Shown one piece after another: positions 34,994 to 56,670 of a DNA stretch of 63,241 nt. Location: the NCBI GenBank assembly GCA_944388145.1, contig CALXHQ010000013.1, positions 1 to 63,241 of the forward strand, read 5' to 3'. Both the position numbers and the translations under genes were made by a program. Source of the DNA: an uncultured Gemmiger sp. (lineage in GTDB: Bacteria > Bacillota > Clostridia > Oscillospirales > Ruminococcaceae). Position 1 is the stretch's first letter, and every line of letters starts with the position of its first letter. The notes beneath the pieces are model-generated. The model saw only the letters and a list, made by a program, of their open reading frames with translations, had not been told where the DNA came from and made no database searches.

Positions 34994-36043
34994 ATTCGTT
35001 TTATCGATCTATTCGCCGGCATTGGCGGCTTCCGAGAGGGGCTGACCCGTGCCGGCGGTTTCACCTGCGTGGGACACTGCGAGTGCGATAAATACGCCGA
35101 ACGCAGCTACCGCGCTCTGTTTAATTGCATAGGAGAGTGGTACACAGAAGATGCCAGAAAAACCGACCCCGACACCATGCCCGGCTTCGACCTGCTCTGC
35201 GGCGGTTTTCCTTGCCAGAGCTTCAGCAGTGCTGGAAAACGCCGCGGCTTCGGAGACCCCCGCGGCACCCTCTTCTTTGAGCTTGCCCGCCTGGCTGAAG
35301 CCCGGAAGCCTCGCTATCTGCTGTTTGAAAACGTACCCGGCCTGCTTAATCATGACGGCGGCCGGACGTTTGCGGCGATCCTCAATGCGCTGGACCGATT
35401 GGGGTATGCTGTGGAATGGCAGGTGCTTAACAGCAAAGATTTTGGCGTCCCTCAATCCCGCCGCCGCGTATACATTGTCGGATTTCTTGACGCCCGATGT
35501 GCCGGAAAGATACTACCTTTCACCACAGCAACAGCAGCGCCTGCTGCCCGACGGCTGGAGGACGGCTTCCCGGTAAAGGAGGCCACCCGCAAAGGGTACA
35601 AGCTGGCCTACCCCGGGGACAGCATCAGCCTGGCTTATAGGACCACAGCCCGCCGCGGCCGGGTGGGGCATGGCATCGCCCATACCCTGACGACCTCACC
35701 CGACCAGGGTGTGCTCTGCTTCGTGGACATGAACGAGAATCCCGATTGCACCAGTCTGGCCCGATGCCTGACCGCCAAGCAAAACGGCGGCATCCACAAT
35801 CACAAGCGGGAAGCCTCCGGCGTGCTGTGCGGTAACCGCATCCGCCGCCTGACGCCGCGGGAATGTCTGCGGCTGCAAGGCTGGCAGGATGACCGCATCG
35901 ACAGGATTTTGGCCGTCACCAGCGAGGCCCAGGCATACAAACAGGCTGGCAACGGCGTGACCGTCAATGTGGTGGAGGCTATTGGCCGCAGGCTGGCGGC
36001 GGTGGATGCCGAGCTGAACGGAGAAACAACCGTTGCCCCTTGA
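34994..36043 (+). CDS. C5-cytosine DNA methyltransferase with non-canonical start
   Basis: This is a Dcm-type enzyme of about 349 residues that methylates cytosine at C5 using SAM. Motif I is RFIDLFAGIGGF, motif IV GGFPCQSFSSAGKR holds the catalytic Cys, motif VI is ENVPG, motif VIII is QSRRR, and motifs IX-X are RRLTPRECLRLQG and QAGNGV. The family N-terminus TIRFIDLFAGIGG is intact, but no ATG, GTG or TTG is in phase before it. An AAGGAG box at 34976-34981 is followed by an ATG that is one base out of phase. ATT 34994 is the nearest possible in-phase start. Starting at GTG 35069 would remove motif I. Confidence 0.85.
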   Translation: MRFIDLFAGIGGFREGLTRAGGFTCVGHCECDKYAERSYRALFNCIGEWYTEDARKTDPDTMPGFDLLCGGFPCQSFSSAGKRRGFGDPRGTLFFELARLAEARKPRYLLFENVPGLLNHDGGRTFAAILNALDRLGYAVEWQVLNSKDFGVPQSRRRVYIVGFLDARCAGKILPFTTATAAPAARRLEDGFPVKEATRKGYKLAYPGDSISLAYRTTARRGRVGHGIAHTLTTSPDQGVLCFVDMNENPDCTSLARCLTAKQNGGIHNHKREASGVLCGNRIRRLTPRECLRLQGWQDDRIDRILAVTSEAQAYKQAGNGVTVNVVEAIGRRLAAVDAELNGETTVAP

Positions 36044-37001
36044 CTTCCGCGACCAGAAGTTCGGCTGCGAGATCGAGATGACCGGCATCACCCGGCAGCA
36101 GGCCGCCGAGGCGGTGGCTGCACTGTTCGGTACCTCGGCCCGCCAAACGTATGAGTCTCGCATCTACGACCCCTGGGAAGTGGAGGACGCAGACGGAAAG
36201 AAATGGCGCTTTGTCTATGACGGCAGTATCCAGGCCACCCAGCGTGTTGGTCGGCGTCAGGAACCAGCCCGAAGCTCGACTTACAAAGTCGAACTCAACT
36301 CGCCAGTGTTGGAATACGCCGAGATGGGCAAACTGCAGGAGGTCGTGCGGGCGCTGCGCCATGCCGGGGCGGTGGTCAACCCCAGCTGCGGGCTTCACGT
36401 CCACATTGACGCGAGTAAGCACACACCGCGCAGCCTGCGCAATCTGATGTCGATCATGTACTCCAAAGAGGACCTGATCTTGGAGGCCGTGGGAACCCAG
36501 CAGCGACGGGTGGAACAGTATTGCCATCTGTCGCGGGAAAACGTGATGAAGGTGATCCGCAATATGCCGCCCAGCCTGACAATGGAGCAGCTGCGCCGCG
36601 CCTGGTACGAGGGGCGTGACGGTGCGCACGACCATTACAACTGGTCGCGCTATTACGCCCTCAACCTTCATTCGGTGTTTTACCACGGAACCGTGGAATG
36701 GCGTTGCTTCGAGAGCACGCTGCACGCCGGGGAGGTCCGCGCCGACATCACCCTGGCGCTGGCTATGTCGGCTCAGGCAATCAACCTGGAAAAGACGGTG
36801 GCCCGCAAGACGCCGGTGGGAGATAACCCGGCCTTTGCGTTCCGCACCTTTTTGCTCCGGCTGGGGCTCATCGGCCCCGAATACAAAAACGTGCGGATGC
36901 ACCTGCTCAAGCGCCTGCCCGGCGACCCTGCCTGGCTGCGAGACCGCAACCAGTATGAAAGTTACCAGCGCCGCCATACCCGCGGCGGCGTTGCCAGATA
37001 G
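36033..37001 (+). CDS. Amidoligase-family protein
   Basis: This is a 322-residue protein of the putative amidoligase family (PF12224), distant relatives of glutamine synthetase and glutamate-cysteine ligase. The start FGCEIEMTGITRQQA holds metal-binding glutamates. VNPSCGLHVHID supplies the conserved histidines, and FYHGTVEWRCFESTLHAGEV is the C-terminal core. Family members are predicted to make amide bonds on peptides or surface polymers. TTG 36033 overlaps the previous stop. It sits directly upstream of the giant adhesin; a joint role is inference. Confidence 0.85.
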   Translation: MPLDFRDQKFGCEIEMTGITRQQAAEAVAALFGTSARQTYESRIYDPWEVEDADGKKWRFVYDGSIQATQRVGRRQEPARSSTYKVELNSPVLEYAEMGKLQEVVRALRHAGAVVNPSCGLHVHIDASKHTPRSLRNLMSIMYSKEDLILEAVGTQQRRVEQYCHLSRENVMKVIRNMPPSLTMEQLRRAWYEGRDGAHDHYNWSRYYALNLHSVFYHGTVEWRCFESTLHAGEVRADITLALAMSAQAINLEKTVARKTPVGDNPAFAFRTFLLRLGLIGPEYKNVRMHLLKRLPGDPAWLRDRNQYESYQRRHTRGGVAR

Positions 37002-37103: not shown

Positions 37104-38249
37104 ATGCATAGGAAACACACAAAACTGTACCGCATTGCAGCCGGATTGCTGGCAGGCATCTGTCTGCTGACAGGCACCGGTGCGACCGCTCTGGTCGCCA
37201 ATGCCGCTCCTGACGGCAGCGCCCCTGTAACAGCCGCCACAGCCACGCCGGAGACCGCCACCCCCGAAACGGCCCTCGGCCCCGAGGCGCAGGCGTTTAT
37301 CGACGCTGTCAACGCGCTGGATCGGGAGTCGATCCTGGCTGCCGTGCGGCAGTGGGCCATTGCCAGCGCCGCCTGGCAGGCCGACCCGGACAATGCCGAA
37401 CTGGAAGAAACATTGAACAAAGCCATTGAAGCATCCGACGCCGCTGCCGCGCCGGTGTATGCCGCCGAAGATCTCTACTACGCCATCCCGGAACAGGAAC
37501 AGCAGGGTGACGAGGTACAGGCCGCCTACACCGCCCTGGCCGCGCTGGTCGCCTCGATGCAGCTGGCGATGGAGCAGCCGGAACTGCCCGAGGATACCGG
37601 CACACCGCCCGATGACAACGAGATGTACGAAGTCCTCTACGGCGATCTGCCGGATGCCCCCACCGGCAACTACATGGGCCGCTATGGCCTGCCGGTTGCC
37701 ACCGGCGATACCAGGATCGGCCTGTCGCTGTGGGCCGAAAGCCTGCTCACCGATGAGAGCACCGGCCGCATGGATGCCGATGCCCTCAACGCGGACAGCC
37801 TGACCGTCACGGTGCCGGTGGAGGACGGCGAGGACTATGCCATTGTGCCGATCATGCTGCAGGTGGAATACCCCGCCAACAACAGCACTACCCAAGTGAT
37901 CCTGCCGGAAAATGTCACGGTTCTGGCGCTTGACAGCCAGGGCCAACTGACCACAGTGGAGGACCCTGCCAGTGTGCTGAACGCGACTTATATGGAGACC
38001 TCCGCCGCCGTGACCGGCATCTATGTGCAGGCCGGAGAAAACTTTACGGCTGAACTGGTCTATACGGCAGAAGATGGCACAACACTGACCAAAACGCTGG
38101 ACGTGGTTGTGGATAGAACGCCGGGCAATGCTATGAGTGTCAGCACCTACGAGGAACGTCCGGTGCCCGATGTTCTGACCGGCAAGATCACGTCGGTGCA
38201 GAAGGTCAATGGCACCTGGCTGATCTGGTTCAACGGCCAGGAGGCCTAA
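37104..38249 (+). CDS. Secreted N-terminal fragment of a giant Cna-B adhesin, cut by an in-frame stop
   Basis: This is the first 381 codons of a larger gene. A Sec signal peptide is clear: basic MHRKHTKLYR, hydrophobic core, and cleavage after VANA near residue 35. A Thr/Pro/Glu-rich stretch and a helical region follow, and then a beta-rich domain. The frame ends at TAA 38247-38249 just after WLIWFNGQEA. The same frame stays open on the other side for another 1651 codons, so this looks like one gene split by a nonsense codon. ACAAGGAGAA precedes the ATG. As it stands the fragment would be secreted without a wall anchor. Confidence 0.85.
   Translation: MHRKHTKLYRIAAGLLAGICLLTGTGATALVANAAPDGSAPVTAATATPETATPETALGPEAQAFIDAVNALDRESILAAVRQWAIASAAWQADPDNAELEETLNKAIEASDAAAAPVYAAEDLYYAIPEQEQQGDEVQAAYTALAALVASMQLAMEQPELPEDTGTPPDDNEMYEVLYGDLPDAPTGNYMGRYGLPVATGDTRIGLSLWAESLLTDESTGRMDADALNADSLTVTVPVEDGEDYAIVPIMLQVEYPANNSTTQVILPENVTVLALDSQGQLTTVEDPASVLNATYMETSAAVTGIYVQAGENFTAELVYTAEDGTTLTKTLDVVVDRTPGNAMSVSTYEERPVPDVLTGKITSVQKVNGTWLIWFNGQEA
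38247..38249 (+). other. In-frame TAA stop inside the adhesin reading frame
   Basis: Codon 382 is TAA, followed without frame change by TGT TGC ACC CAT GGC (CCTHG). Related thioester domains have an aromatic residue then Cys here, so a TAT or TAC (Tyr) changed to TAA is the simplest explanation. Both sides are coding in the same frame. Confidence 0.85.
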
Positions 38250-38390
38250 TGTTGCACCCATGGCGCCCAGGGTACGCCCAACGGCTGCCCGACCTATACC
38301 TATGCCTACACCTCCATCATTGGCGCTGAACAAATCACCCCCGGCGACCACTATGCCAACCAGGTCAATATTTGGGGTGGCCTTGGTCAG

Positions 38391-41300
38391 TTGTCGTTGA
38401 ATCTGTTGACCGTCCAACATGAGGGAGCGTTCTCTGCCTCTACTTTCAGTCTGGATGGCGAATCGGACGAGACCAATCAGGCAGCCTACACCTATTACGA
38501 TGACCTGCAGCTGTGGATCATGCAGCATTACCCCGACAGTATAGCTGCGCAGGCTTATCGCCAATCCGCAGCCCAGCTTGCCGGCGGCGTGACCACCTAC
38601 CAGGCAGACAGCGACTATTACTCCTACATTTACGTTCCGCCCGCCGGTATGAACTGGCAGACGGTCGCCCTGATCGGCCCGCCCACCGGCAGCACCAACC
38701 CGGATATTCCGGAGACCACGCCGGACTATTACGCCTCCTGGTCGGCTGGCCCGCAGACAGCCAGCGGCTCGCTGGATCTGAGCTACGGGTTGAATCTTCG
38801 CAAGGTCGGCCTTGTTACCGGCGAGACGATTGACGAAGCCACCTTTGAGATCACGCCCTCGGCCACCGGCGGCACCATCGACGGCGGCAGCTGGAGCCTG
38901 ACGCCTGCCGGCAGCCAGACGGTGACTACCAGCGGCCACGTCATGGACGATACCTACCACACCACCGGCGGCAACGCCTCGGCCAGCTGGAAGCTCAACT
39001 ACTCAGTCAGCAAAACCAGCGGCAGTGACAGCGGCAACGTGGGGCCGTATTCGTCCCAAGAAGAAGCCAACGCGGCAGCCAGCGCGGCTCAGAGCAAAGC
39101 GGTCAGCCGGCTGCAGGGCGAGGCGCAGGCGGCCGTGGATGCGGCCATTGCATCGGCCAAATCTCAGCTGGCAAACATCACATTTACAGTGAAAGAAACC
39201 AGCGTCCCCCACGGCTTTGACGCCTACACGGGCAGCACCGGCAGCGAGCAGCAGGTTTCCGTGCCCGCGGACGGCAGCACCGATGCGACCATCTACAACG
39301 ATGAGTGGAGCATCCAGGTCAACATTGCCAAGATCGACAGCGAGACCCGCCAGCCCATTGCGGCGGACGCCAAGTTTGCCGTGTTTGAGTGGGATACGGT
39401 CGAACAGATGTACATTCCCTTCGGCGGGTACAACCAGTATACGGTCGTCCGCAACGAGGACGGTACATACTCTGTCGCCAACGGCAGCAGTTACGCCGCC
39501 GACAGCCCGGCCAACCGCACCCTCTATTACACCCAGCGCAATGAGGGCAAGTTTATCATCGTGGAGACTCGCGCCCCGGAAGCCTACTATGGCGATTGGA
39601 CGGACGTCTCTCAGCCCGGCACGGCTGGACAGGTGGAGGGCAAGCGCGCCTATGCGTTCACCATCTCCAAGGACAATGACGGCTCGGTCATCGACCTGTC
39701 CAATACCGGCTACAACGCCGCCATCGGTACCGCCGACAACGGCGGCACCCTGCTGCGCACGCCGGAGGGCAACACCGTCACGGTTTCGCTGTATGACGCG
39801 CCGCAGGATGCCACCCGTGTCTATACAACCGACAGCACCGGCCTGGCAAACAATGAGGACACCTACACCAGCACCCCGGTCAGCGGCAAGTTTACCAATG
39901 ACCGCGTGATCGGTCAGATCATCCTCGCCAAAGCCGACCTCGACCAGTTGAAGAAGTCGGTGCCGCGTGCCCTGGCCGATGTGGAGGGCAACGAGGTCAC
40001 GATCCCGGGCGGCGAGCTGCACGGTACTGCCAGCATCGAGGGGGCGGTGTATGACCTCTATGCCGCCGAGGACATCCAGCACCCGGATGGTGTCAGCGGC
40101 ACGGTGGACTACAGCAAGATCGTGGATGCCAACGGCAACCCGATCTGGCACACCACCGTGCTGACCAACGGCGGTTGGGATACCGACTATCTGCCGGTTC
40201 TTGCCAAAGACCACCTGGTCGCCAGCGCCGAAATCAAGGACGGTGTGCTGGTGTTCAGCAACTTGTATCTTGGCAAATATTATCTGGTCGAACGCGCGAC
40301 CGGCATTGTTCTGCCGCTGGACGGGGATGGACAGTATTATGTCTCCGGCCAGTATCCTGTACTGGACAGAACCTTGCAGGCCACTGGCGAGTACAAGCCG
40401 TTGGCCACCAACAGCCGTGGCGAGTACACTGATTACGTCTACAAAAACCAGTACAGTGCCGTGGCCGAGGGCCGCGCGCTGACCGGCATCAAGACCTACG
40501 ATGGGTATTACCTCAGCTTTGCCGAGGGGTATCTGTGCGATGAAAACAACCACTATGAGACCTTGACCTACGGCGGCGAAAGCCAGTATGTCATCCGTGA
40601 AACGGATGGCTCCAAAGACGCGGTGTTGAAATCCGGCTTCTCCATCCAGAAGGTTGTCAGCACAACCGGCCCCGGCAGCCCTGCTCTCAAGCTGGAAGGC
40701 GCGGGCTTCACGGTCTATCGTATCTGGGACCTGAGCAAAGTGGACGAATTCCAGAAAAATGCCGACGGCACCTACAATGTGCAGAGCATTCTCGATGCTT
40801 ACCGCAAGGACAACTACGACAACGACACCCCGAAGTACGATTTCAGCGGCGAGGGCGCGGCAGTTGCCCGGATGTATGAGTTTGACCAGGCACTGGTGGA
40901 AGAATATAACGCGACATTGACCGCGGCCTACGACTTTGCCAACGGCCAGGGTAATGGCTGGGTGCCGACTCAGAACATCAACGAATACCGCTTGTCTGAA
41001 CTGTTCACCAACGAAGAAGGTATTATCCGCGTGACCGGCCTGCCCTATGGCCAGTACCTGATCGTGGAAACAACGGTGCCGCAGGATGTATTCCAGTGCG
41101 ACCCGTTCATGGTGACAGTCGATTCAGCTGCGCCGCAGAGCGTCCTGTGCCAGCCAGTCGGCACGGTTACAACACCCAGCAACAGCTACATGGCCTACAA
41201 CGTCCTCAATGAAGAGTTGGAAGGCTATTTGCAGCTCATCAAGATCGACGCTGAAACCGGCAAGCCGGTCAAAATCGCCGACACCGCGTTCCAGATTTAT

Positions 41301-43205
41301 CGCATTCTGGATGACGGGACGGAAGAACTCATTGAAATGCCCGACCCGGATTCCGGGAATGCCACCGCCAAGACTTCTACCTTCTATACCGACGCGGACG
41401 GCTACCTCAAGACGCCCGAAAAGCTGCCGTTGGGCCGCTATCGCGTGGTCGAACTGGAAGGCCCGGCAGGCTTCTTCAACGACACCGCCTATAACGTGGT
41501 CTTTGAACTGACTTCGGAACGTGCATGGGAAGTCGTTGGTAACGCCACCGACGATATGGACGACTACATCCTCACCGAAGAATACAGCAACCACGAGACG
41601 CTGGGCCAACTCACTATTCGCAAGATCGGCAACGTCCTGACCGGGTATGAGGACGGCCAGTTTATCTATGAGCAGACCAATCTTGCCGGGGCTACCTACG
41701 AAATCCGCGCCCACGGCGACATTACCACCGGCGACCGCCAGGGCACACTCTGGTATGCCGACGGCGACCTGGTTGCCACAGTGACCACGGGCGAAGAAGG
41801 CCAAGTGGACGAGGTGAAATTCAGCCCCACCCGCACCCAGGCTACCTACGATTTCCTTTCGGTCCGCCACGATGGCACCACCGGCGAAGTGACGATCACC
41901 CTGCCGCTTGGTTCCTACGACATCACCGAGGTGCAGGCCCCCTACGGCTTTGTGTTGACTGACCAAACCTACACTGTGACCTTTGGTTGGAATGACCAAA
42001 GCAACGATGTGGTGCTGGCCCAGACCATCGTGGACCACACCCAGGACGGCGATGAAACCTACAGCTACGGCATCGTCAATGTGTCCAACGCGACCGAGGA
42101 TGAATTGGGCAATCTGCCCGGTACCATCGTGTTCGAGAACGCCCGTGTGCTTCCCGTGCCTGAGACGCCGGAGAATCTCGTGGACAAAATTGGCATCGGC
42201 ATCCACAAGCAGGACGCAGAAACCAGCCAGCCGCTGGCCGGGGCCGTGTATGAACTCTACACAGTGGACGCGATCTATGACGTAAACGGCAACAAGCTGG
42301 CCGATGCCGGAACCCTGCTCGCCACCAGCAGCCCAACCGATGACACCGGCTTTGCCTGGTTCGATGTGGACGTGCCCATCCGCGGTGAGGCCTACGTGGA
42401 CGATGAGACCAAGCCAGCAGACGGCGTCTGGAACGCCCGCTATAACAGCGGCAACTATCAGATTGTTGAAATCACCGGTCCTGACGGCTACCTGCTCGAC
42501 CCGACGCCCATTGCGGTCAGCTTCACCTACCCCGGCCCGCGGGTTTCCTGGCAGGTGGTCGCCGCTACCCAGGCTGACCAGCCGCTGGACAGGCTGACCA
42601 TCCACAAGACCGACGTCGGCGGCAAGGAACTGCCCGGCGCGGAGCTGACCGTCACCACGCTGGAGGGTGACCCCATTGACAGCTGGGTGAGCGAGGAAAC
42701 GCCGCACGCACTGCCCATTCTGGAACCTGATGCCGAGGAACAGGACGGTGCGATCCGTTACTCGGATGCAGATAACGAGTTTGTCTACATCCTGCATGAG
42801 GACGCCGCGCCGGATGGCTATCTGGTTGCCACGGACATCCAGTTCAAGGTGGAACAGGATGAAGATGGCCGCATTACAGTGTACATCCGTGCGACCTCTG
42901 CCGACAGCTGGCACAAGGTGGACGGCGCGTCTGTGACAATGGTCGATACGGCCAAGCCGCAGCCCGCCCCGACGCCCACACCCACCACGACCGTTACGGT
43001 CACGGCCACGCCTACGCCGGCTCCCGTCTTCCATGTTCCGCAGACCGGGGACAGCACACCGCTGCTGGCAATCGTGATTGTGACCGCACTGGCCGCCACT
43101 GGCTTTGTGGTTCTGTTGGCAATTCGCCGCCGCGGAAACCGGCTGCAAGAAGAAAACGACCCGCAGCTCGAACCGCGGGATGACCCGGAGAATACCAATG
43201 AGTAA
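38391..43205 (+). CDS. Thioester/Cna-B-repeat surface protein with VPQTG sortase signal (downstream part)
   Basis: The open frame actually begins at 38250, right after the TAA; TTG 38391 is only the first usable start codon. Counted from 37104, Cys383 and Cys384 and the LQLW segment with Gln469 fit a thioester domain that can bind host surfaces covalently. About seven Cna-B/SpaA-type domains follow, each opening like KIDAETGKPV or KQDAETSQPLAGAVYELY. A Thr/Pro-rich stalk leads to VPQTGD (from residue 1978), a membrane segment and RRRG. An acidic tail after the anchor is unusual. Translation from 38391 would lack a signal peptide, so this part is probably not displayed. Confidence 0.85.
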   Translation: MSLNLLTVQHEGAFSASTFSLDGESDETNQAAYTYYDDLQLWIMQHYPDSIAAQAYRQSAAQLAGGVTTYQADSDYYSYIYVPPAGMNWQTVALIGPPTGSTNPDIPETTPDYYASWSAGPQTASGSLDLSYGLNLRKVGLVTGETIDEATFEITPSATGGTIDGGSWSLTPAGSQTVTTSGHVMDDTYHTTGGNASASWKLNYSVSKTSGSDSGNVGPYSSQEEANAAASAAQSKAVSRLQGEAQAAVDAAIASAKSQLANITFTVKETSVPHGFDAYTGSTGSEQQVSVPADGSTDATIYNDEWSIQVNIAKIDSETRQPIAADAKFAVFEWDTVEQMYIPFGGYNQYTVVRNEDGTYSVANGSSYAADSPANRTLYYTQRNEGKFIIVETRAPEAYYGDWTDVSQPGTAGQVEGKRAYAFTISKDNDGSVIDLSNTGYNAAIGTADNGGTLLRTPEGNTVTVSLYDAPQDATRVYTTDSTGLANNEDTYTSTPVSGKFTNDRVIGQIILAKADLDQLKKSVPRALADVEGNEVTIPGGELHGTASIEGAVYDLYAAEDIQHPDGVSGTVDYSKIVDANGNPIWHTTVLTNGGWDTDYLPVLAKDHLVASAEIKDGVLVFSNLYLGKYYLVERATGIVLPLDGDGQYYVSGQYPVLDRTLQATGEYKPLATNSRGEYTDYVYKNQYSAVAEGRALTGIKTYDGYYLSFAEGYLCDENNHYETLTYGGESQYVIRETDGSKDAVLKSGFSIQKVVSTTGPGSPALKLEGAGFTVYRIWDLSKVDEFQKNADGTYNVQSILDAYRKDNYDNDTPKYDFSGEGAAVARMYEFDQALVEEYNATLTAAYDFANGQGNGWVPTQNINEYRLSELFTNEEGIIRVTGLPYGQYLIVETTVPQDVFQCDPFMVTVDSAAPQSVLCQPVGTVTTPSNSYMAYNVLNEELEGYLQLIKIDAETGKPVKIADTAFQIYRILDDGTEELIEMPDPDSGNATAKTSTFYTDADGYLKTPEKLPLGRYRVVELEGPAGFFNDTAYNVVFELTSERAWEVVGNATDDMDDYILTEEYSNHETLGQLTIRKIGNVLTGYEDGQFIYEQTNLAGATYEIRAHGDITTGDRQGTLWYADGDLVATVTTGEEGQVDEVKFSPTRTQATYDFLSVRHDGTTGEVTITLPLGSYDITEVQAPYGFVLTDQTYTVTFGWNDQSNDVVLAQTIVDHTQDGDETYSYGIVNVSNATEDELGNLPGTIVFENARVLPVPETPENLVDKIGIGIHKQDAETSQPLAGAVYELYTVDAIYDVNGNKLADAGTLLATSSPTDDTGFAWFDVDVPIRGEAYVDDETKPADGVWNARYNSGNYQIVEITGPDGYLLDPTPIAVSFTYPGPRVSWQVVAATQADQPLDRLTIHKTDVGGKELPGAELTVTTLEGDPIDSWVSEETPHALPILEPDAEEQDGAIRYSDADNEFVYILHEDAAPDGYLVATDIQFKVEQDEDGRITVYIRATSADSWHKVDGASVTMVDTAKPQPAPTPTPTTTVTVTATPTPAPVFHVPQTGDSTPLLAIVIVTALAATGFVVLLAIRRRGNRLQEENDPQLEPRDDPENTNE

Positions 43206-43653
43206 ACCTGCCAAGATGCGCGTTGTCATTGTGGAGCCGGGCAAATATGCCCGCGAAGCCGAGATTGACAACACGCTGGAGGCTGAACAGGCGGTGGTGG
43301 GCGGCCTGATCGACGCCATTTGCCCCTGGCCGGAGGATAAGGCCTGCCTGATCCTCAATGACGAAGGCAAGATCATCCCGCTGGAACCGAACCGGGCATT
43401 GCCCGAATATGAGGACGTGGTGTTCGGCACCTTCTTCATCTGCGGCGACGGCGGAGAGGATTTTTGCGGTTTGACCGAGAAACAGGTCGAGCGCTATCTC
43501 GCACGTTTCCGGCGGCCGGAGATTATTCTTGACACGCCAACCGGCATCCTTTGCGTACCTTGCACACCGAAACGCTATGAGCAATTCATGGAAAAAGTAC
43601 AAGGTGAGAACGGACCGAACCATCCCGATCACAAAGACGGACCGTCCAGATAA
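43198..43653 (+). CDS. DUF3846-type ICE protein
   Basis: This is a 151-residue protein overlapping the adhesin stop by eight bases. The run VVIVEPGKYAREAEIDNTLEAEQAVVGGLIDAI with CLILNDEGKIIPLEPNRAL and DVVFGTFFICGDGGEDF is typical of the DUF3846 family, found in clostridial ICEs and phages. Its function is unknown. A 10-bp hairpin follows its stop. Confidence 0.75.
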   Translation: MSKPAKMRVVIVEPGKYAREAEIDNTLEAEQAVVGGLIDAICPWPEDKACLILNDEGKIIPLEPNRALPEYEDVVFGTFFICGDGGEDFCGLTEKQVERYLARFRRPEIILDTPTGILCVPCTPKRYEQFMEKVQGENGPNHPDHKDGPSR

Positions 43654-43667
43654 TGCACCAACACCAG

Positions 43668-43691
43668 GGGCGCAGCCAGGCGGCTGCGCCC
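43668..43691 (+). terminator. Hairpin upstream of the ICE SAM synthetase
   Basis: GGGCGCAGCC (43668-43677) pairs perfectly with GGCTGCGCCC (43682-43691) around AGGC. The following TACATTTATTATAAAGGAG is AT-rich and contains the ribosome-binding site. Confidence 0.6.
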
Positions 43692-43717
43692 TACATTTAT
43701 TATAAAGGAGAAATTCT

Positions 43718-44860
43718 ATGACCCATTTTTATTCCGCCGAATCGGTGACCGCTGGCCACCCCGACAAACTCTGTGACCAGATCGCCGACGCGGTGCTGGA
43801 CGGATGCTTGGCTCTCGACCGCAATGCCCGGGTGGCCTGCGAGGTTCTGGCAACCAAAGGCCACATTGTTCTGGCAGGCGAGATCAGCACCGCGGTCATG
43901 CCGGATATTGGAAAGTTGACCCGCGAGACACTGGAAAACGCCGGATACAATTCCAAAGATTTTGAGATCGAAAGCCTGATCCACCCCCAAAGCCCTGACA
44001 TTGAGGCCGCTGTCAATGACCCGCTGGACGCCGAAACCGACCCCGACGCCATCGGCGCGGGCGACCAGTGCGTGGTGGTTGGCTACGCCACCGACGAGAC
44101 CCCCGAAATGCTGCCGCTGCCGGTCGTGCTGGCCCACCGCCTGACCAGCTGCCTGACGCTTGCCCGGCTGACCGGCGCGGTACCGGGGCTTGGCCCCGAC
44201 GGCAAGGCAATGGCCATCGTCGAGTATGAGGATGACATCCCGGTGAAAGTCGCCAAAATCGTGCTGTCTTTTCAACACACCCCCAAAGTGGACCCCACCG
44301 ATCTCACAGAGCCGATCTGGAAAAATGTGATCCTGTCGGCCCTCAAAGGGATGCCCTACGATGACAGCCTGGAGCTGATTCTGAACCCTGGCGGCCATTT
44401 TGTACTGGGCGGCCCGGAGGCCGATACCGGTCTGACCGGCCGCAAGCTGGCCGTGGATGCCTACGGCCCCTTTGTGCCCACCGGCGGCGGGGCGTTCTCC
44501 GGCAAGGACCCGACCAAGCTCGACCGCAGCGGGGCCTACATGGCGCGGTGCGTGGCGAAAAACATCGTGGCCAGCGGCATTGCGCAGCGGTGCCAGGTCA
44601 CGTTGACCTACGCCATCGGCATGGCAAAGCCGCTGGCCGTGGAGGTGGATACCTTCGGCACCGGCCTGCTCTGTGAGGACGACTGCCTTGCATTGGCGGT
44701 GCAGACGGCGTTCGATCTGACCCCGGCCGGGATCATTACGGAACTGGACCTGCAGCGGCCCATCTACGCCCGTACCGCGGTGGGCGGCCACTTTGGCCGC
44801 GAAGATTTCCCCTGGGAAAAGCTCGACCGCACCGGCCTGCTGATGGCGACCATACGGTAA
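43718..44860 (+). CDS. metK: S-adenosylmethionine synthetase carried on the ICE
   Basis: This is a 380-residue enzyme that makes SAM from methionine and ATP. Family motifs are ESVTAGHPDKLCDQIADAVLD, GAGDQCVVVGYATDE (the GAGDQG-type ATP motif with Cys at the last glycine), GGHFVLGGPEADTGLTGRK, and GGGAFSGKDPTKLDRSGAY. The phosphate-binding P-loop GGGAFSGKD is intact. It is clearly diverged from a housekeeping copy, for example in GYATDETPEMLPL. It stands between the two DNA methyltransferase genes of this element, which use SAM. TAAAGGAGAA precedes the ATG. Confidence 0.92.
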   Translation: MTHFYSAESVTAGHPDKLCDQIADAVLDGCLALDRNARVACEVLATKGHIVLAGEISTAVMPDIGKLTRETLENAGYNSKDFEIESLIHPQSPDIEAAVNDPLDAETDPDAIGAGDQCVVVGYATDETPEMLPLPVVLAHRLTSCLTLARLTGAVPGLGPDGKAMAIVEYEDDIPVKVAKIVLSFQHTPKVDPTDLTEPIWKNVILSALKGMPYDDSLELILNPGGHFVLGGPEADTGLTGRKLAVDAYGPFVPTGGGAFSGKDPTKLDRSGAYMARCVAKNIVASGIAQRCQVTLTYAIGMAKPLAVEVDTFGTGLLCEDDCLALAVQTAFDLTPAGIITELDLQRPIYARTAVGGHFGREDFPWEKLDRTGLLMATIR

Positions 44861-44861
44861 T

Positions 44862-45854
44862 ATGCCCGGCGTTACCAAAGAACAGGTCGCCGCCGCACGG
44901 CGGATGACGGCCATCGAGTTTTTGCGCCGCTACCGGGCGGACGATCTTGTCAAGAGCAGCGCCCGCGGCGAGTTTGAGCTGAAAAGCCACGACAGCTTCA
45001 AGATCAACGGCGAGTCGAGCCTCTGGCACTGGAAAAGCCGGGGGATTGGCGGCAAGTCGGCACTGGATTACCTCATGCACGTGGAGGGCTGCTCTTTTGT
45101 GGAGGCAGTGCGCTTGCTCTGTGAGGAGCAGCCGGTATTTACACCGCAGAAACACGCCGATGTGGAGCACCAGCGCCCGCCGTTTGAACTGCCCGAAAAA
45201 TCCCCGACTACCACGCGGGTGGAAGCCTACCTGCGCTGTCGGGGCATCTCGCAGCCCGTGATCGACCATTGCCTGAAAGCCGGCATCCTATACGAGAGCC
45301 TGCCCTACCACAATTGTGTGTTTCTCGGCCGGGATGCGGACGGTGTGCCGAGGTATGCTGCCCTGCGCAGCACCTACACCTACGGTAAACAGTTCAAAGC
45401 AGAATCCACCGGAAGCGATAAGAAATTTGGCTTTTGTATCGAACCAACGGAAAAAAGTAAAACAGCGGCTGTGTTCGAAGCCGCTATCGATGCAATGGCC
45501 GAGATGACGCTGGCCGGGGATGCGACGGACAAGTACCGCCTGTCCCTCGGCGGCATCTACGCGCCGGAAGAAGGCCGCGACATCCACCCGCCTGCCGCGC
45601 TGGAAGAATTCCTGCGCCGCCACCCACAGGTGGACCGCATTGAGTTCTGCCTCGACAACGACCCGCCTGGCCGTGCTGCGGCGGTCGCCTTGGCTCGCCT
45701 GTACGGCAAACGGTACCAGGTGGCGGTGCGCCTGCCGCCGATTGAGGGCTTCGACTATGGCGACCTGGCGCAGGCGGCACTGGAATACCGCACAAAGAAC
45801 AAAGCAACAAGCTGTGCAAGAAAGCAAAACAAATTCAAAGACAATGTGAGGTGA
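44862..45854 (+). CDS. DUF3991/TOPRIM-domain protein
   Basis: This is a 330-residue protein. The N-terminal region (about 1-100, with LKSHDSFKINGESSLWHWKSRGIGGKSALDYLMHVEG) resembles a primase-type zinc-ribbon or DUF3991 segment. The C-terminal part is a TOPRIM fold, with FEAAIDAMAE and FCLDNDPPGRAAAVALAR giving the acidic DxD-like metal site. Proteins of this type are regular in Tn1549-like elements and may serve in priming or processing of transferred DNA. It follows metK by one base and has a weak ribosome-binding site, so it is probably coupled. Confidence 0.8.
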   Translation: MPGVTKEQVAAARRMTAIEFLRRYRADDLVKSSARGEFELKSHDSFKINGESSLWHWKSRGIGGKSALDYLMHVEGCSFVEAVRLLCEEQPVFTPQKHADVEHQRPPFELPEKSPTTTRVEAYLRCRGISQPVIDHCLKAGILYESLPYHNCVFLGRDADGVPRYAALRSTYTYGKQFKAESTGSDKKFGFCIEPTEKSKTAAVFEAAIDAMAEMTLAGDATDKYRLSLGGIYAPEEGRDIHPPAALEEFLRRHPQVDRIEFCLDNDPPGRAAAVALARLYGKRYQVAVRLPPIEGFDYGDLAQAALEYRTKNKATSCARKQNKFKDNVR

Positions 45855-49107: not shown

Positions 49108-50430
49108 ATGGCTTACACCTCTCTCATCCCCGTGCGCCGCCTGGACCGGGCTATTACCTATGTTCGGGATAAGGCCAAAACCACAAAGCCAAGATCGTTG
49201 GAAGAAGCGGTGGACTATGCCCTCAACCGCGACAAGACCGAGTCTGTCTGCTTTGAGACGGGCCTGAGCTGCCTGTGCGAAACGGCGTTTACCGACATGA
49301 AGGAAAATGTGCAGCGCTGGCACAAGACCGGCGGCGTGCAGGGTTACCACCTTGTCCAAAGTTTTGCCGAGGGTGAAGTCACGACGGAGCTGGCCCACCA
49401 GATCGGCGTGGAACTGGCCGACCAGCTGTTGGGCGGGCGGTATCAGGCAGTGGTGACTACTCACCTCAACACCCGTCACATCCATAACCACATTGTATGG
49501 TGTGCGGTGGCGCTGGATAATGGCCGCAAATACCACAGCAACGCCAAAAGCTATTACACCGAGGTGCGGGCCAGGTCAGACGCTCTGTGCCGGCAGTATG
49601 GACTGTCGGTGATTGAAACGCCGGAATCGGAGCGCGGCAAGCGCCAGTATGCCAAATGGCAGGCGGAAGCCAACGGCCAGCCGTCCTGGCGCACCGCCAT
49701 CCGTATGGATGTGGATGAGGCCATCGCGCTGGCGCTGACCTGGCGGCAGTTTCTGGCGGTTTTGGAACGAAAGGGCTACGAAATCCGTATGGGCCGCAAA
49801 TACCCGACACTGCGTCCACCCGGCAAGGAACGCTTCGTACGGTTCAAAACACTGGGCAAATCGTATACGCCGGAAGCCATCCGGCGGCGGATTTTGTATC
49901 CGAAGCGCCCTTTTACACCTCCAGCAGTATGGCATGGACGTTTGCATGGTGCATACCGCAAAGCCCGCAAGCTCACCGGCCTGTGGGCTTTGTATTATCG
50001 GTACCTGTACGAATTGGGCGCGCTGCCACGCAAGCCCCAACGCCCCCGCTATGCCGTGCGGCAGGACATCCGCAACCTGGACAAGCGCATCCGGCAGATG
50101 GAATTTTTATCTCGCCATGAAATCGACACGCTTGACCAGTTGGATGACTACCGCCAGACGCAGGAACAGGCCGTGGCGGCTCTGTTGGCCGAGCGCCGCC
50201 AGCTGCACCGTGCCGAACCGAGCGATGAGATCAAGGCCAGGCTGGCTCAGATCACGCAAGCTCTCAAACCGCTGCGGCGGGACATCCGTCTTTGCCGCCA
50301 GATTGCAGAGCAATCGGTGCAGATGCGGGAGCGGCTGATACAGCGGGCCGAAAAGTTGCCTGAACAGAATCCCGAACAGGAGAGAACTACAGAACGAGAA
50401 GTTAATAGGGAACCCAATCAAAGCAGATAG
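49108..50430 (+). CDS. mobA: Relaxase/mobilisation nuclease (VirD2/MobP-like)
   Basis: This is a 440-residue DNA-nicking transesterase. The N-terminal relaxase domain (PF03432-like) covers about residues 1-180. The metal-binding triad is in TRHIHNHIVW (His124, His126, His128). QGYHLVQSF lies before it, and a tyrosine among the N-terminal segments should carry the covalent DNA. A basic, coiled C-terminal region (RQDIRNLDKRIRQMEFL onward) follows. It nicks oriT and pilots the strand to VirD4. A GAGG-type ribosome-binding site overlaps the end of mobC. Confidence 0.92.
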   Translation: MAYTSLIPVRRLDRAITYVRDKAKTTKPRSLEEAVDYALNRDKTESVCFETGLSCLCETAFTDMKENVQRWHKTGGVQGYHLVQSFAEGEVTTELAHQIGVELADQLLGGRYQAVVTTHLNTRHIHNHIVWCAVALDNGRKYHSNAKSYYTEVRARSDALCRQYGLSVIETPESERGKRQYAKWQAEANGQPSWRTAIRMDVDEAIALALTWRQFLAVLERKGYEIRMGRKYPTLRPPGKERFVRFKTLGKSYTPEAIRRRILYPKRPFTPPAVWHGRLHGAYRKARKLTGLWALYYRYLYELGALPRKPQRPRYAVRQDIRNLDKRIRQMEFLSRHEIDTLDQLDDYRQTQEQAVAALLAERRQLHRAEPSDEIKARLAQITQALKPLRRDIRLCRQIAEQSVQMRERLIQRAEKLPEQNPEQERTTEREVNREPNQSR

Positions 50431-50453
50431 CAGAGAATGATGGAGGAATGCTT

Positions 50454-50753
50454 ATGAGAGGTGATTTGAACAACCCCAACCGGTGGTCCTACCGCCGTGC
50501 GTATGCCGAGCGCAATTATCCGCCCGGCACGCGGGTGCGACTTGTGAGTATGCCGGACGATCCCGACCCGGTGCCGGAGGGCACCTGCGGCACCGTCCTG
50601 GCGGTGGACGGCGCGGGCCAGCTGCTCATGCGGTGGGACAATGGCCGCAGCCTGTCGCTTCTGCCCGGGGTGGACAGCTTCGAGGTGCTGGAGCGGCCGC
50701 CGCATCGAGACACCCCGGCGCACAGCGCCCGTAACAAAGGAGATGCCAGATGA
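50454..50753 (+). CDS. DUF4314-type small protein
   Basis: This is a 99-residue protein; YPPGTRVRLVSMPDDPDPVPEGTCGTVLAVDGAGQLLMRWDNGRSLSLLPGVDSFEVL is a small beta-barrel of the DUF4314 family, common in Tn1549-like elements. ATG 50454 is preferred over 50448 because GGAGG lies 7 bases upstream. Its stop overlaps the PcfB start. Confidence 0.8.
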   Translation: MRGDLNNPNRWSYRRAYAERNYPPGTRVRLVSMPDDPDPVPEGTCGTVLAVDGAGQLLMRWDNGRSLSLLPGVDSFEVLERPPHRDTPAHSARNKGDAR

Positions 50754-51541
50754 ACCTGGGCTCCGACCCGGCTGACCAGGTCGTCCGCTATACGCTGGAG
50801 GGCAGCGAGTTTGCCCTCCGGATGACCGGCACGGCCGCCAAAAACTTTGCGGTCTTTGTCGCTGCCGTCCTGCGCGACCAGAAAAAGACCCGCGGCAAGA
50901 CCAATCTGACCCGGCTGCTGCGGGCGGGCAAGCCGCTGAAGTTCTTCTCGGTGGCCGAGGAGCGGATGCGCGAGTTCACGCAGGAGGCCAAGCGCCACGG
51001 CCTGCTGTTCGTCCCGATGCGCGACCGCACCAATCCCGGCAGCATCGAGATCGCCATTTGGGCCGACGATGCGGCTAAGGTGGAGCGGATCATAGACCGG
51101 ATGCAGTTGGATATGGTCGAAACCGGCGAAGCCGAGATCATGACGGATATTACGCCCGACCAGCCTACAGAGGAACAAGTTCCCCAAGAACAGCAGCCTG
51201 CACAAGCTGCTGATAACAGTCCCACTCCGTTCGAGCCGGATGGCACCGACTACGACCTGGGTTTTACCCAACCGGCCCCGCCGCCCGCGGAGCCGGACAG
51301 CCCGCCGCCTTCCCGCTCGACCCGGAGGACCGGCCCTCCGTCCGCGCCACCCTCCGCCAGCAGAAGCAGCTCGCCCAATATTTCGCCCGCGCCGCGCGCC
51401 GACTGGGTTCGGGCCAGGGGTGAGCGCCCCAGCGTGCGGGACGAGCTGCGGGAGATCAAAGCGATGCTGCGCGCTACACAGCCGGTGGCACCCAAACCCA
51501 AAGCGCCCATCCGCATCCACCGCAGCGACCAGGCGCGGTAG
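50750..51541 (+). CDS. PcfB-family conjugation protein
   Basis: This is a 263-residue protein (DUF3801/PcfB family). LGSDPADQVVRYTLEGSEFALRMTGTAAKNFAVFVAAVL is the family start; the folded part ends near residue 135. A long Pro/Ser/Arg-rich low-complexity tail follows. In Firmicutes plasmids PcfB works with the coupling protein and relaxase. AAAGGAGATG precedes the ATG. Confidence 0.85.
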   Translation: MNLGSDPADQVVRYTLEGSEFALRMTGTAAKNFAVFVAAVLRDQKKTRGKTNLTRLLRAGKPLKFFSVAEERMREFTQEAKRHGLLFVPMRDRTNPGSIEIAIWADDAAKVERIIDRMQLDMVETGEAEIMTDITPDQPTEEQVPQEQQPAQAADNSPTPFEPDGTDYDLGFTQPAPPPAEPDSPPPSRSTRRTGPPSAPPSASRSSSPNISPAPRADWVRARGERPSVRDELREIKAMLRATQPVAPKPKAPIRIHRSDQAR

Positions 51542-51660
51542 GCCGGAAGTTTTCCGTTTGTTTTCAATTAGGGGATAGCTTTTTAAGGAGAGATACAGTA
51601 GTGTTGATACTGAAAAAGACAAACAACAGCCGGGCCCCTCCCGGCAGATCGGAGGATACC

Positions 51661-51975
51661 ATGCGTCGCAACAACATCCGAATCATGAAGATGAATCGCA
51701 ATAATCGCAGTATTTTGATGTGGGCATTGTATGCGGATTTTTGTGCCAACCGGGCGGCGGGGCGGCCTTATGGCAACCTGGCCGCCCTCATCACGAAGCT
51801 GCACGAAACGCAGCCCGGCAAGCTGCCGCTGGACGATGCCGAGTACCGCCTGGTCCGCAACGCCCTCAACCATCTGCGCAACGAACGGATCGCCACGGGT
51901 GGTTACACAGACGCCGCGGATGCGGCATTGCTCAAACTGGTCAAGGCCAAACCGCGGCTGTGGCCGTTTGGGTGA
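51661..51975 (+). CDS. Small ICE protein of unknown function
   Basis: This is a 104-residue basic helical protein (MRRNNIRIMKMNRNNRSILMW, then LPLDDAEYRLVRNALNHLRNERIATGGYTDAADAALLKLV). A start at GTG 51601 behind AAGGAG is also possible and would add 20 residues; ATG 51661 is favoured because GGAGG lies 5 bases upstream. I recognise no family. Confidence 0.55.
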   Translation: MRRNNIRIMKMNRNNRSILMWALYADFCANRAAGRPYGNLAALITKLHETQPGKLPLDDAEYRLVRNALNHLRNERIATGGYTDAADAALLKLVKAKPRLWPFG

Positions 51976-51988
51976 ATTTATAAATTCT

Positions 51989-52834
51989 ATGGGAAGCCTG
52001 GATCACCTGTCTGGGTTTCCGTTACGTCAGGAGGTGCTTGAACCCAACAACAAAACTATACAAAAGGATAAGCCTGTTCTGACCGTTGCCTCGCTCTCAG
52101 GCGGGAAGGATTCCACAGCTATGTTACTTCGCCTGCTGGAGGAAGGCCGCCAGGTGGATGAGATCCTCTTCTGTGACACTGGCCTCGAGTTTCCGCAGAT
52201 GTACGCCCATCTGGAAAAGCTGGAACGGTATATCGGCCGCCCCATCACCCGGCTGAAAGCGCCCTATACCTTCGAGCAGTATTTCTACGAATACCAGGCC
52301 AAAGGCGATGCGGCATTGGCCACCAACCGGGGCCTGAGCTGGCCGTCCCATGCCTGCCGCTGGTGTACCGGCCGCCTCAAGGCCCATGTCATCGCCAAGC
52401 ACCTGCGGGGATTGAAACGGCAGTACCACCTGGTTCAGTATGTCGGCATTGCGGCAGATGAAGCCCACCGCTGCAAAGACCTGCACTATCCACTGGTGGA
52501 GTGGGGCATGACCGAGGCGGATTGCCTCAATTACTGCTATGCCCGTGGCTTTGACTGGGGCGGGCTGTACAAGATCTTCCGGCGGGTGTCTTGCTGGTGC
52601 TGCCCGCTGCAGCCGATCTCGGAACTGCGGAAACTTCGTAAGCATTGCCCTGACCTGTGGCAAAAGCTGCTGTACATGGACGCCCACACCTGGCAGCCGT
52701 TCCGCCCCGACTATACCGCGCAGCAGCTGGAAGAACGGTTCGCGCTGGAGGAAGAACGAGCCGCCCAGGGCCTGCCCAACAAGGGGCGGGCCTTTTATGC
52801 TGCCCTGCACAAACGATGGGAGGAATGTACATGA
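51989..52834 (+). CDS. Phosphoadenosine-phosphosulfate-reductase-family PP-loop protein
   Basis: This is a protein of about 281 residues with an adenine-nucleotide alpha-hydrolase fold. The PP-loop is SLSGGKDSTAM, followed by FCDTGLEFPQMY. Cysteines in HACRWCTGRLK and RRVSCWCCPLQP could hold an iron-sulfur cluster, as in DndC and related enzymes. Sulfate assimilation is unlikely in this context. ATG 51989 lacks a good ribosome-binding site, whereas an AGGAGG at 52029 is followed by no in-phase start. The next gene overlaps its stop by four bases. Confidence 0.75.
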   Translation: MGSLDHLSGFPLRQEVLEPNNKTIQKDKPVLTVASLSGGKDSTAMLLRLLEEGRQVDEILFCDTGLEFPQMYAHLEKLERYIGRPITRLKAPYTFEQYFYEYQAKGDAALATNRGLSWPSHACRWCTGRLKAHVIAKHLRGLKRQYHLVQYVGIAADEAHRCKDLHYPLVEWGMTEADCLNYCYARGFDWGGLYKIFRRVSCWCCPLQPISELRKLRKHCPDLWQKLLYMDAHTWQPFRPDYTAQQLEERFALEEERAAQGLPNKGRAFYAALHKRWEECT

Positions 52835-53625
52835 CGCAAAACGAGTTTTGGGCCATCATCGACCGCGCCCGGCAGCGCGCCGCCCCGAACAGAGAACCGG
52901 CCATGCTGGACGCACTGTACGGGGAATTAGTGAAACTGCCCACTCTGAAACTGTCCGCCTGGCAGAACTTGCAATACGCCTACATGGATCTGGCACATAC
53001 ACCCAAATTGTTTGCTGTCGCCGTCCTGATTAACAGTGGCAGCTCAGATGACCGCTTTTTGGACTTTACAGCATGGCTTGTAATGCAGGGACGCGAGGTA
53101 TACGAAGCAGCGTTGGCCAATCCGGATTCTCTTGCAAAGGCAGACCTGCCCTTTGATAGCGCCGAATGGGAACTCTGCGGCTCTATCGCAGACAATGCGT
53201 ATACTGGCAAGCAGTATCTGGCCCTGTTTGAACCAGATGCCCCGGCAGGCCAGTTGCTGCGCCGCCACTACCCGGAACGGACCGACCTGCGCACCCATGT
53301 GGAGCGCATTTGCAGGGACGAGGCCCTGGGTCGTCCGTTTTACCCGGTGGGCGGCGACCAGGACATCGAAGGGCTTTTGCTGCAATGGAATATCTGTCAG
53401 TGCATTTTTCACAGCGGTATCTCCCGATACAACGAGGACTTCATTCCGGATCGGCAGGCTCGCGAGGAACTGCGGACCGAGCTGGCCAAGGGCCTTGCCA
53501 TCCAGCGTAGCCCGGCCGGCGAGAACCTGAAAGAATCGCTGCCCCAACTGTGGCAGAAGCGGACCGCCTGGGAAGAAGCCCGGGCCGCCGAGCATCCCCA
53601 TCCCCACAGGGACCGGGAGCGGTAA
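52831..53625 (+). CDS. DUF4240-domain protein
   Basis: This is a 264-residue protein. The start MTQNEFWAIIDRARQRA and the helical region to about residue 130 match the DUF4240 family, whose function is unknown. The second half is acidic and helical and not recognised. It overlaps the PP-loop gene (ATGA) and is followed by the coupling protein gene, so it is likely cargo expressed with the transfer operon. GGGAGGAATGTAC precedes the ATG. Confidence 0.7.
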   Translation: MTQNEFWAIIDRARQRAAPNREPAMLDALYGELVKLPTLKLSAWQNLQYAYMDLAHTPKLFAVAVLINSGSSDDRFLDFTAWLVMQGREVYEAALANPDSLAKADLPFDSAEWELCGSIADNAYTGKQYLALFEPDAPAGQLLRRHYPERTDLRTHVERICRDEALGRPFYPVGGDQDIEGLLLQWNICQCIFHSGISRYNEDFIPDRQAREELRTELAKGLAIQRSPAGENLKESLPQLWQKRTAWEEARAAEHPHPHRDRER

Positions 53626-53628
53626 CCG

Positions 53629-55482: not shown

Positions 55483-55801
55483 TCTCCATAACCCCCGCAA
55501 AACTGTTTTCCTGCGCCGCAGCTTTGCGCTGTATGCTGCCGCTATTTCCGCCTGTTCGCTGGCCATGCCCGCGCTGGCCGCCACCACTGACCCGCTGACC
55601 GTTATCGGCAACTTGAACACCTTTATTTTCAGTGTCATCCGCGCCGTTGGCCTGATCCTGCTGGGCTGGGGCATTGTCCAGATTGGTCTGTCGCTGCAAA
55701 GCCACGATCCCAGCCAGCGCAGCCAGGGCTTTTTGACGTTGGCGGGCGGCATCATTATCACTTTTGCGAAGGAGATTCTCGACCTGATTGTCGGCCCGTG
55801 A
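55451..55801 (+). CDS. Maff2-family small membrane protein
   Basis: This is a 116-residue protein with an N-terminal basic region and signal-like segment (ending ALAAT), then two hydrophobic helices (FIFSVIRAVGLILLGWGIVQIGLSL and GGIIITFAKEILDLI). This is the Maff2 family, a VirB2/VirB6-region companion in Tn1549-type elements and possibly a pilin-like or channel subunit. ATGAGGAGG precedes the ATG. Confidence 0.85.
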   Translation: MNRKNQNRPNNLHNPRKTVFLRRSFALYAAAISACSLAMPALAATTDPLTVIGNLNTFIFSVIRAVGLILLGWGIVQIGLSLQSHDPSQRSQGFLTLAGGIIITFAKEILDLIVGP

Positions 55802-55833
55802 CCATGCCGCGGCAGGGAAGGTGGTGATGCAAT

Positions 55834-56670
55834 ACGAATAATAATTGGATCGTCGACAACCTGACCAATGCCCTCAACACCTGGAACGACAAGCTCAATG
55901 AAATATGGCGGATGCTGACGGTCAGCCCGGTCAGCTACAACGGCGGCGCGGTGTGGAGCGTGATGACCGGCATCCACGGCACGCTGCAGGCCATCGCATA
56001 TGGGTTGTTGGTGCTGTTCTTTGCCGCCGGTGTGGTCAAGACCTGCGGCAGCTTTGTAGAGGTGAAAAAGCCGGAGCACGCCCTCAAGCTGTTCATCCGC
56101 TTTGTGCTGGCCAAGGCGGCGGTGGATTTCGGCATGGACCTGATGCTGGCCGTCTTCAATATTGTACAGGGCATGATCTCACGGGTGATCAGCGCATCCG
56201 GCGCAAGCGGCATCGGCAGCACCACGCTGCCGCAGGAACTCATCGACACAATCAACGCCTGCGGATTCTGGGAGAGCATCCCGCTGTGGGCGGTGACGCT
56301 GATCGGCAGCCTGCTCATCACGGTGCTGTCCTTTGTCATGGTGCTGACCGTCTATGGCCGGATGTTCAGCCTTTGGATGTACGCCGCCATCGCGCCGGTG
56401 CCGCTCGCCGCCTTTGCGGGCGAACCCACCAGCAGCGTGGGCAAGAACTTCCTACGCAGCTATGCGGGGGTGTGTTTGCAAGGTGTGGTCATTGCTTTGG
56501 CCTGCATCATCTTCTCTGCCCTCGCCACCAGCGCGCCCACGGTGGCGGCCGGAACCTCGGCCATCACGGCGGTATGGTCGTATGTCGGCTCGCTGGCGTT
56601 CAATCTGTTGGTGCTGGTGGGGGCGGTCAAGGGGTGTGACAGGATCGTCAAAGAGATCATGGGGCTGTAA
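55834..56670 (+). CDS. TrbL/VirB6-like conjugal membrane protein with non-canonical start
   Basis: This is a polytopic protein of about 278 residues with six or so membrane helices, in the position of the VirB6/TrbL channel component. The stretch NNNWIVDNLTNALNTWNDKL before the first in-frame ATG (55912) looks like the conserved family N-terminus, yet it has no ATG, GTG or TTG. A GGAAGGTGG box precedes an ATG at 55827 that is one base out of phase and meets TAA after four codons. ACG 55834 lies at the right distance. If translation starts at 55912 the protein has 252 residues and lacks this segment. Confidence 0.8.
   Translation, partial: TNNNWIVDNLTNALNTWNDKLNEIWRMLTVSPVSYNGGAVWSVMTGIHGTLQAIAYGLLVLFFAAGVVKTCGSFVEVKKPEHALKLFIRFVLAKAAVDFGMDLMLAVFNIVQGMISRVISASGASGIGSTTLPQELIDTINACGFWESIPLWAVTLIGSLLITVLSFVMVLTVYGRMFSLWMYAAIAPVPLAAFAGEPTSSVGKNFLRSYAGVCLQGVVIALACIIFSALATSAPTVAAGTSAITAVWSYVGSLAFNLLVLVGAVKGCDRIVKEIMGL

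What the first reader, a model, noticed from the sequence alone, without database searches (positions are those of the whole stretch)
38247..38249. In-frame TAA splits a ~2,033-residue adhesin one codon before its thioester cysteines
Seen: the frame from 37104 to 43205 is continuous apart from one TAA, and the residues after it (CCTHG) match what thioester domains have after an aromatic residue, with a partner-like LQLW segment at Gln469. Known: such domains need Cys and Gln. Inference: a Tyr codon became TAA, either silencing the adhesin, or as a variant in part of the population, or with readthrough. The position at the reactive site is striking, because it leaves only a secreted stump without sortase anchor.
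Basis: partly seen in the sequence, partly recalled or inferred. Interest (0 to 1): 0.72.

Follow-up and report, generated by a model that had tools for sequence, protein, structure and literature searches.

The report
Nonsense-broken thioester adhesin on mobile element
A gut bacterium's mobile DNA element carries a very large sticky surface protein gene cut in two by a single stop codon right at its predicted chemical grip site; the related copies examined lack that stop, so this copy is most likely a recently switched-off gene.

Summary
Confirmed: one in-frame TAA at 38247-38249 divides an otherwise open 2,033-codon frame (37104-43205). None of 26 other copies read at that codon has a stop there; the closest relative found, L015, is intact. 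The gene sits among conjugation genes of an integrative conjugative element in a Gemmiger-type commensal and looks like a surface, probably mating, adhesin: signal-peptide-like start, Ig-like region, thioester-like head, five SpaA stretches, VPQTG anchor. The stop falls on the [YFL] position of the [YFL]C motif. No UAA-reading tRNA, conserved readthrough, repeat or re-initiation site was found. Selection on the window's branch is unrelaxed, so the stop is young, or a base error. Eight of 40 homologous copies are damaged, including other single stops in G341 and G058, against 0 of 23 VirB4 controls from genomes with the adhesin; not significant after length correction. Best reading: a recent loss-of-function allele of a conjugation adhesin. 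Thioester-domain membership rests on motifs; profile tests were negative and fold models poor.

The parts
37104..38246 (+). 5' piece of the adhesin: 381 codons, ATG preceded by AAGGAG; signal-peptide-like N-terminus and Ig-like region; ends just before the stop
   Evidence: in AF2 of the intact relative L015 only the Ig-like part (residues 71-180 of the fragment, block means 64-91) is reasonably confident
38247..38249 (+). in-frame TAA at the [YFL] position of the [YFL]C(hydrophobic)(hydrophilic) motif
   Evidence: motif as quoted in PMC8092201 and PMC6194298
38250..43202 (+). 3' piece: 1,651 open codons; rest of head, stalk and anchor; first in-frame starts after the stop are TTG 38391 and ATG 38520, behind the Cys
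38250..38252 (+). predicted thioester Cys (first of CC), invariant in 20 of 20 aligned heads; the second Cys is not
38358..38375 (+). NQVNIW, fits the QxxPhiW helper motif of thioester domains
   Evidence: motif from PMC6194298
38505..38522 (+).
38655..38672 (+). WQTVAL: predicted bond-forming Gln519 in PhiQ(zeta)PhiPhi; W and Q invariant in 20 of 20 heads
40983..42878 (+). five SpaA (prealbumin-like) stretches of the stalk
43035..43118 (+). VPQTG sorting signal and hydrophobic anchor segment
   Evidence: (LPXTG_anchor 14.5 bits, under the cut-off 15.9)
35069..37001 (+). C5 DNA methylase and amidoligase, upstream neighbours in the element
43105..45854 (+). DUF3846, SAM synthetase, DUF3991/Toprim, downstream neighbours
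49108..60185 (+). relaxase, VirD4, TrbC-like, PrgI and VirB4 genes of the conjugation machine; frames open against the G220 element

Best explanation
The window carries a recently inactivated allele of the surface (probably mating) adhesin of an integrative conjugative element. Shown: a single nonsense codon in an otherwise open, conserved frame; intact copies in relatives; no other broken large gene in the part of the element that could be compared. Inferred: translation ends at the TAA, giving a secreted 381-residue stump without reactive Cys, Gln, stalk or anchor; the 3' piece is not exported. Without its covalent head the element should make mating contacts less well, as shown for the pLS20 thioester adhesin of Bacillus subtilis, while its transfer genes stay intact.
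For: 0 of 26 other copies have a stop at the site; sense codon in 17 of 17 loci. No second stop in either piece. ARAGORN named 43 of the 44 tRNA matches of the genome and none reads UAA (the 44th, C6:3721-3786, was not named and gave no Rfam hit); the same frame uses TAA as its terminal stop. No direct or inverted repeats at 37900-38700. dN/dS window-L015 0.19 (5' piece) and 0.125 (3' piece); window-branch changes in the 3' piece 147.6 synonymous and 53.4 nonsynonymous against 146.3 and 51.7 on the L015 branch, so unconstrained evolution covers about 0.3% of the branch (97.5% bound 5.8%). Neighbouring ICE genes also flank the adhesin in L015 and L017-L021; compared large ICE genes are unbroken against G220. 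pLS20 precedent: passages of PMC8092201.
Against: A base-calling or assembly error is not excluded; no reads were available. The window-L015 comparison is mosaic (0 to more than 50 mismatches per 300 bases), so the dating is rough. No transfer role has been shown for this family, and L016 shows no other matching ICE gene in the 13 kb held. The thioester assignment fails profile tests and has no confident fold.
Confidence: 0.76

Rival explanations
1. Sequencing or assembly error: the strain has a sense codon and the adhesin is intact.
For: The window is one contig of a 29-contig draft; no relaxation of selection is visible, which an error would also give; no second lesion.
Against: No repeat at the site and no homopolymer; substitution errors in draft assemblies are rare (general knowledge); other copies carry independent breaks, though some of these could be errors too.
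Confidence: 0.13
2. Phase or population variant: part of the population has the stop, part an intact adhesin, selected back and forth.
For: The lesion is a single codon with both halves conserved; other copies are hit independently.
Against: No repeats or invertible segment found at the site. Not testable here without reads.
Confidence: 0.06
3. Programmed readthrough at TAA yields a little full-length adhesin.
For: 3' piece under purifying selection on the window branch.
Against: Stop not conserved in any copy read; no UAA-reading tRNA named; TAA followed by T, recalled as a tight terminator; same frame ends in TAA.
Confidence: 0.02
4. Two genes by design: a secreted stump and a separate downstream protein.
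For: Both halves conserved.
Against: Comparable relatives encode one protein; the first in-frame starts after the stop lie behind the Cys and show no clear ribosome site.
Confidence: 0.02

Closest known systems
TIEpLS20 (p34), class II thioester-domain adhesin of the conjugative plasmid pLS20, Bacillus subtilis (PMC8092201, passages read)
   Same: Large secreted multi-domain surface protein encoded among conjugation genes of a Gram-positive mobile element; N-terminal [YFL]C motif and a conserved Gln near the end of the head; stalk of Ig-like/CnaB-type domains.
   Different: No detectable profile similarity of the heads; ours has a sortase-type anchor, SpaA stretches and about 2,000 residues, TIEpLS20 has 767 residues in the record used (778 in the paper) and is said not to be sortase-coupled; Cys-Gln spacing 136 (window, L015) against 188.
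Class I and II thioester domains (PMC6194298, passages read)
   Same: Three motifs in the same order: [YFL]C(hydrophobic)(hydrophilic), QxxPhiW, PhiQ(zeta)PhiPhi; followed by a stalk of isopeptide-type domains and a cell-wall anchor.
   Different: Pfam TED and TED_2 match none of the copies tested; an extra Ig-like region precedes the head; no structure.
Nonsense pseudogenes of bacterial surface proteins in general (recalled)
   Same: Single premature stop in an otherwise conserved gene.
   Different: The stop lies at the predicted reactive site, and other copies of the same family are also broken.

Membership tests
Bacterial thioester domain (TED) adhesins | Invariant Cys in [YFL]C(hydrophobic)(hydrophilic) | tested here: met
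   Cys invariant in 20 of 20 chosen heads and the preceding residue fits [YFL] in all 20; the window has the stop in place of that residue
Bacterial thioester domain (TED) adhesins | Invariant bond-forming Gln in a PhiQ(zeta)PhiPhi context near the end of the head | tested here: met
   WQ invariant in 20 of 20 heads; window WQTVA at 38655
Bacterial thioester domain (TED) adhesins | TQxxPhiW helper motif between them | tested here: inconclusive
Bacterial thioester domain (TED) adhesins | Match to Pfam TED (PF08341) or TED_2 (PF20610), or to a known TED profile | tested here: not met
   no match for window pieces or the intact relatives tested, while TIEpLS20 matches both; hhalign of 27 heads against a 9-row TIEpLS20 family: probability 0.0
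Bacterial thioester domain (TED) adhesins | TED fold with Cys and Gln in bonding distance | tested here: inconclusive
   AF2 on intact L015 with 6-row alignments: mean pLDDT 45.9 and 39.0, head mostly below 50; no fold search was run
Bacterial thioester domain (TED) adhesins | Thioester bond (17 Da loss) | not testable with these tools
   needs mass spectrometry
Sortase-anchored SpaA/CnaB surface proteins | SpaA domains and C-terminal sorting signal | tested here: met
   SpaA E 1.3e-56, five stretches; VPQTG plus hydrophobic segment, though LPXTG_anchor scores 14.5 bits, under its cut-off of 15.9
Conjugative-element mating adhesin (TIEpLS20-like role) | Encoded within the conjugation region | tested here: met
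   between amidoligase/methylase and DUF3846/SAM synthetase, upstream of relaxase, VirD4, VirB4; parts of the block flank it in L015 and L017-L021, not in the held stretch of L016
Conjugative-element mating adhesin (TIEpLS20-like role) | Needed for efficient transfer | not testable with these tools
   needs a gene-removal and mating experiment

The most novel reading that the evidence does not exclude
ICE-borne thioester adhesins of gut Clostridia are repeatedly switched off after the element has settled (nonsense, stalk deletion, decay, head swapping), so that loss of the covalent mating head is a selected step, trading horizontal spread for lower cost or for escape from phages, immunity or clumping in the host.
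Probability: 0.13. Interest if true: 0.55.

Novelty: new member of a known kind. Interest (0 to 1): 0.33.

Why it matters
It gives a natural loss-of-function allele in a divergent family of thioester-like adhesins that current profiles miss and that is carried by conjugative elements of gut commensals. If the heads are real thioester domains, covalent mating adhesins are wider spread than the profiles show, and the broken and head-swapped copies form a ready comparison for asking what such heads do for transfer.

Tried and rejected
Readthrough, recoding, re-initiation, slippage and inversion were considered and rejected or found unsupported. Copies in other collections: the 5' piece has no match in plasmids; the 3' query no relative in viral contigs; profile A3 one weak viral-contig match, L158; the intact L015 head two unannotated 'Bacteriophage sp.' records from human faeces (not followed up). 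AF2 on 6-row alignments twice gave poor models. PDB sequence search with A2 gave one chance-level hit, E 0.43. hhalign against the TIEpLS20 family found nothing. Literature searches 'thioester domain + pseudogene + premature stop codon', 'conjugation adhesin + loss-of-function ...' and 'Tn1549 + SpaA + adhesin + isopeptide' listed nothing on point in the 12 rows shown each.

The idea that adhesin copies break more often than a core gene: 8 of 40 against 0 of 23 VirB4 copies from genomes with the adhesin, Fisher 0.023, but 0.19 after a rough length correction; one search used 36 instead of 40 and is superseded on this point. Of the 40 copies, 10 are cut by contig ends or chimeric (G297:C35, G297:C25, G303:C30, G303:C19, G309:C63, G127:C4, G320:C20, G320:C67, G321:C134, G304:C201) and 2 (G302:C120, G308:C32) end just after FPQTG without a hydrophobic anchor and were left unscored; 20 end in an anchor-like tail.

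Full report
What is there. The window is contig 13 of a 2.73 Mb, 29-contig draft genome. Eight of the ten named records with relatives are labelled Gemmiger, and a same-genus genome, G220, has a contig of the same length as the Gemmiger formicilis An812 record, so the host is a Gemmiger-type bacterium; that these are gut commensals is recalled. An ATG at 37104 behind AAGGAG opens a frame of 381 codons that ends at TAA 38247-38249; the same frame continues for 1,651 codons to a second TAA at 43203-43205. The 3' piece has SpaA stretches (E 1.3e-56, five), a weak pilin D1 match, a VPQTG signal and a hydrophobic anchor. It is the only match of this head in the genome; SpaA matches also lie on C1, C2, C3, C6 and C24.

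Surroundings. The gene sits in a conjugative element: ParM-like actin, DUF6017, C5 methylase, amidoligase, adhesin, DUF3846, SAM synthetase, DUF3991/Toprim, N6/N4 methylase, relaxase, VirD4, TrbC-like (below cut-off), PrgI, VirB4. Parts of the same block flank the adhesin in L015 and L017-L021 as far as their stretches reach; in L016 only adhesin matches were found in the 13 kb held. Against the sister element of G220 (contig C88) I saw no other broken large gene; two small apparent stops lie before the likely real starts of their genes, and the stretch 60190-62086 has no counterpart there.

Relatives at the site. Loci with both halves show one sense codon between them in 17 of 17 (16 distinct copies). 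With a profile of six intact heads, 14 of 396 family genomes, 15 of 35 genus genomes, 2 of 11 genomes of G341's genus and 2 of 394 order genomes matched (overlapping sets; the window's genome is). One search read all 27 copies at the site: the window's is the only one with a stop. The 13 further copies show no stop inside the match, except a TGA in the G319 remnant. L015 is 94% (5' piece) and 89% (3' piece) identical and intact to its anchor.

The head. These are the three motifs given for thioester domains in PMC6194298 (passages). So the reactive Cys would be the first of CC and its partner Gln519; Gln469 is kept in 18 of 20 and may instead belong to the helper motif. Against membership: no Pfam TED match to any copy tested, although TIEpLS20 matches both TED profiles; no hhalign similarity to nine TIEpLS20-type heads; two poor AF2 models. 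I therefore call it thioester-like by motif.

Age and fate of the stop. dN/dS between window and L015 is 0.19 (5') and 0.125 (3'). On the window branch the 3' piece has 147.6 synonymous and 53.4 nonsynonymous changes, on the L015 branch 146.3 and 51.7; unconstrained evolution can cover only a few per cent of the branch (point 0.3%, 97.5% bound 5.8%). The divergence is mosaic, so this is a rough bound. It fits a very young mutation, an error, or a protein still made; for the last I found no support: no UAA-reading tRNA among the 43 of 44 that were named, the stop is not conserved, and no repeats lie at the site.

Other damaged copies. Of 40 copies matched, eight are damaged: the window; G341:C138, a TAG 10 codons before the site, in a syntenic element; G058:C79, a single TAG 834 codons after the site with the frame then open to a VPQTG signal; G274, stalk end lost and fused to other sequence; G054, tail lost; G316, fused to unrelated DNA, possibly misassembled; and near-identical decayed remnants in G151 and G319. 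Twenty end in an anchor-like tail, ten are cut by contig ends or chimeric, two end just after FPQTG without a hydrophobic anchor and were not scored. In genomes with the adhesin, 0 of 23 scored VirB4 copies have a stop (at most two scored per genome, some from other elements); in genomes without it six listed VirB4 rows do. Fisher 0.023 for 8 of 40 against 0 of 23, 0.19 after length correction: suggestive only. G220 carries the same stalk with a different, shorter head, so heads are also exchanged.

Mechanism. In pLS20 a thioester adhesin in the conjugation operon is needed for efficient transfer, and changing its Cys abolishes function (PMC8092201, passages). By analogy the window's element has lost its covalent head, stalk and anchor and should mate less well while its transfer machine remains. 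This step is inference.

Verdict. The more interesting parts are the recurrent damage and the divergent thioester-like heads.

Noticed in passing
L167 (G058:C79), stalk of adhesin: Single in-frame TAG in the stalk of a homologous adhesin, then an open frame to a VPQTG sorting signal.
   Followed up: partly
L162 (G341:C138): Independent TAG 10 codons before the same site in a syntenic element; contig ends 225 codons after the site.
   Followed up: partly
L165 (G274:C1:1502000-1510000): Adhesin region 99.6% identical to the G054 copy up to base 3134, then different: stalk end lost and fused to other sequence.
   Followed up: partly
   Followed up: no
L020 / L159 (G220:C88): Stalk 83% identical to the window's with a different, compact head that carries thioester-like motifs: head exchange.
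   Followed up: partly
window 31315-31390: tRNA-Val (gac); similarity to the G220 element begins at 31356, inside its 3' part, suggesting the element's attachment site.
   Followed up: no
window 51731-53625: PAPS-reductase-like and DUF4240 genes between conjugation genes; this stretch has no counterpart between the aligned blocks of the G220 element: probable cargo.
   Followed up: no
G000:C23:22827-25130: Second, distant VirB4 (37% identical) in the same genome: another conjugative element.
   Followed up: no
window 34524-35450 and 37074-37500: Blocks nearly identical to L015 next to blocks up to about 18% different: recombination mosaic.
   Followed up: partly
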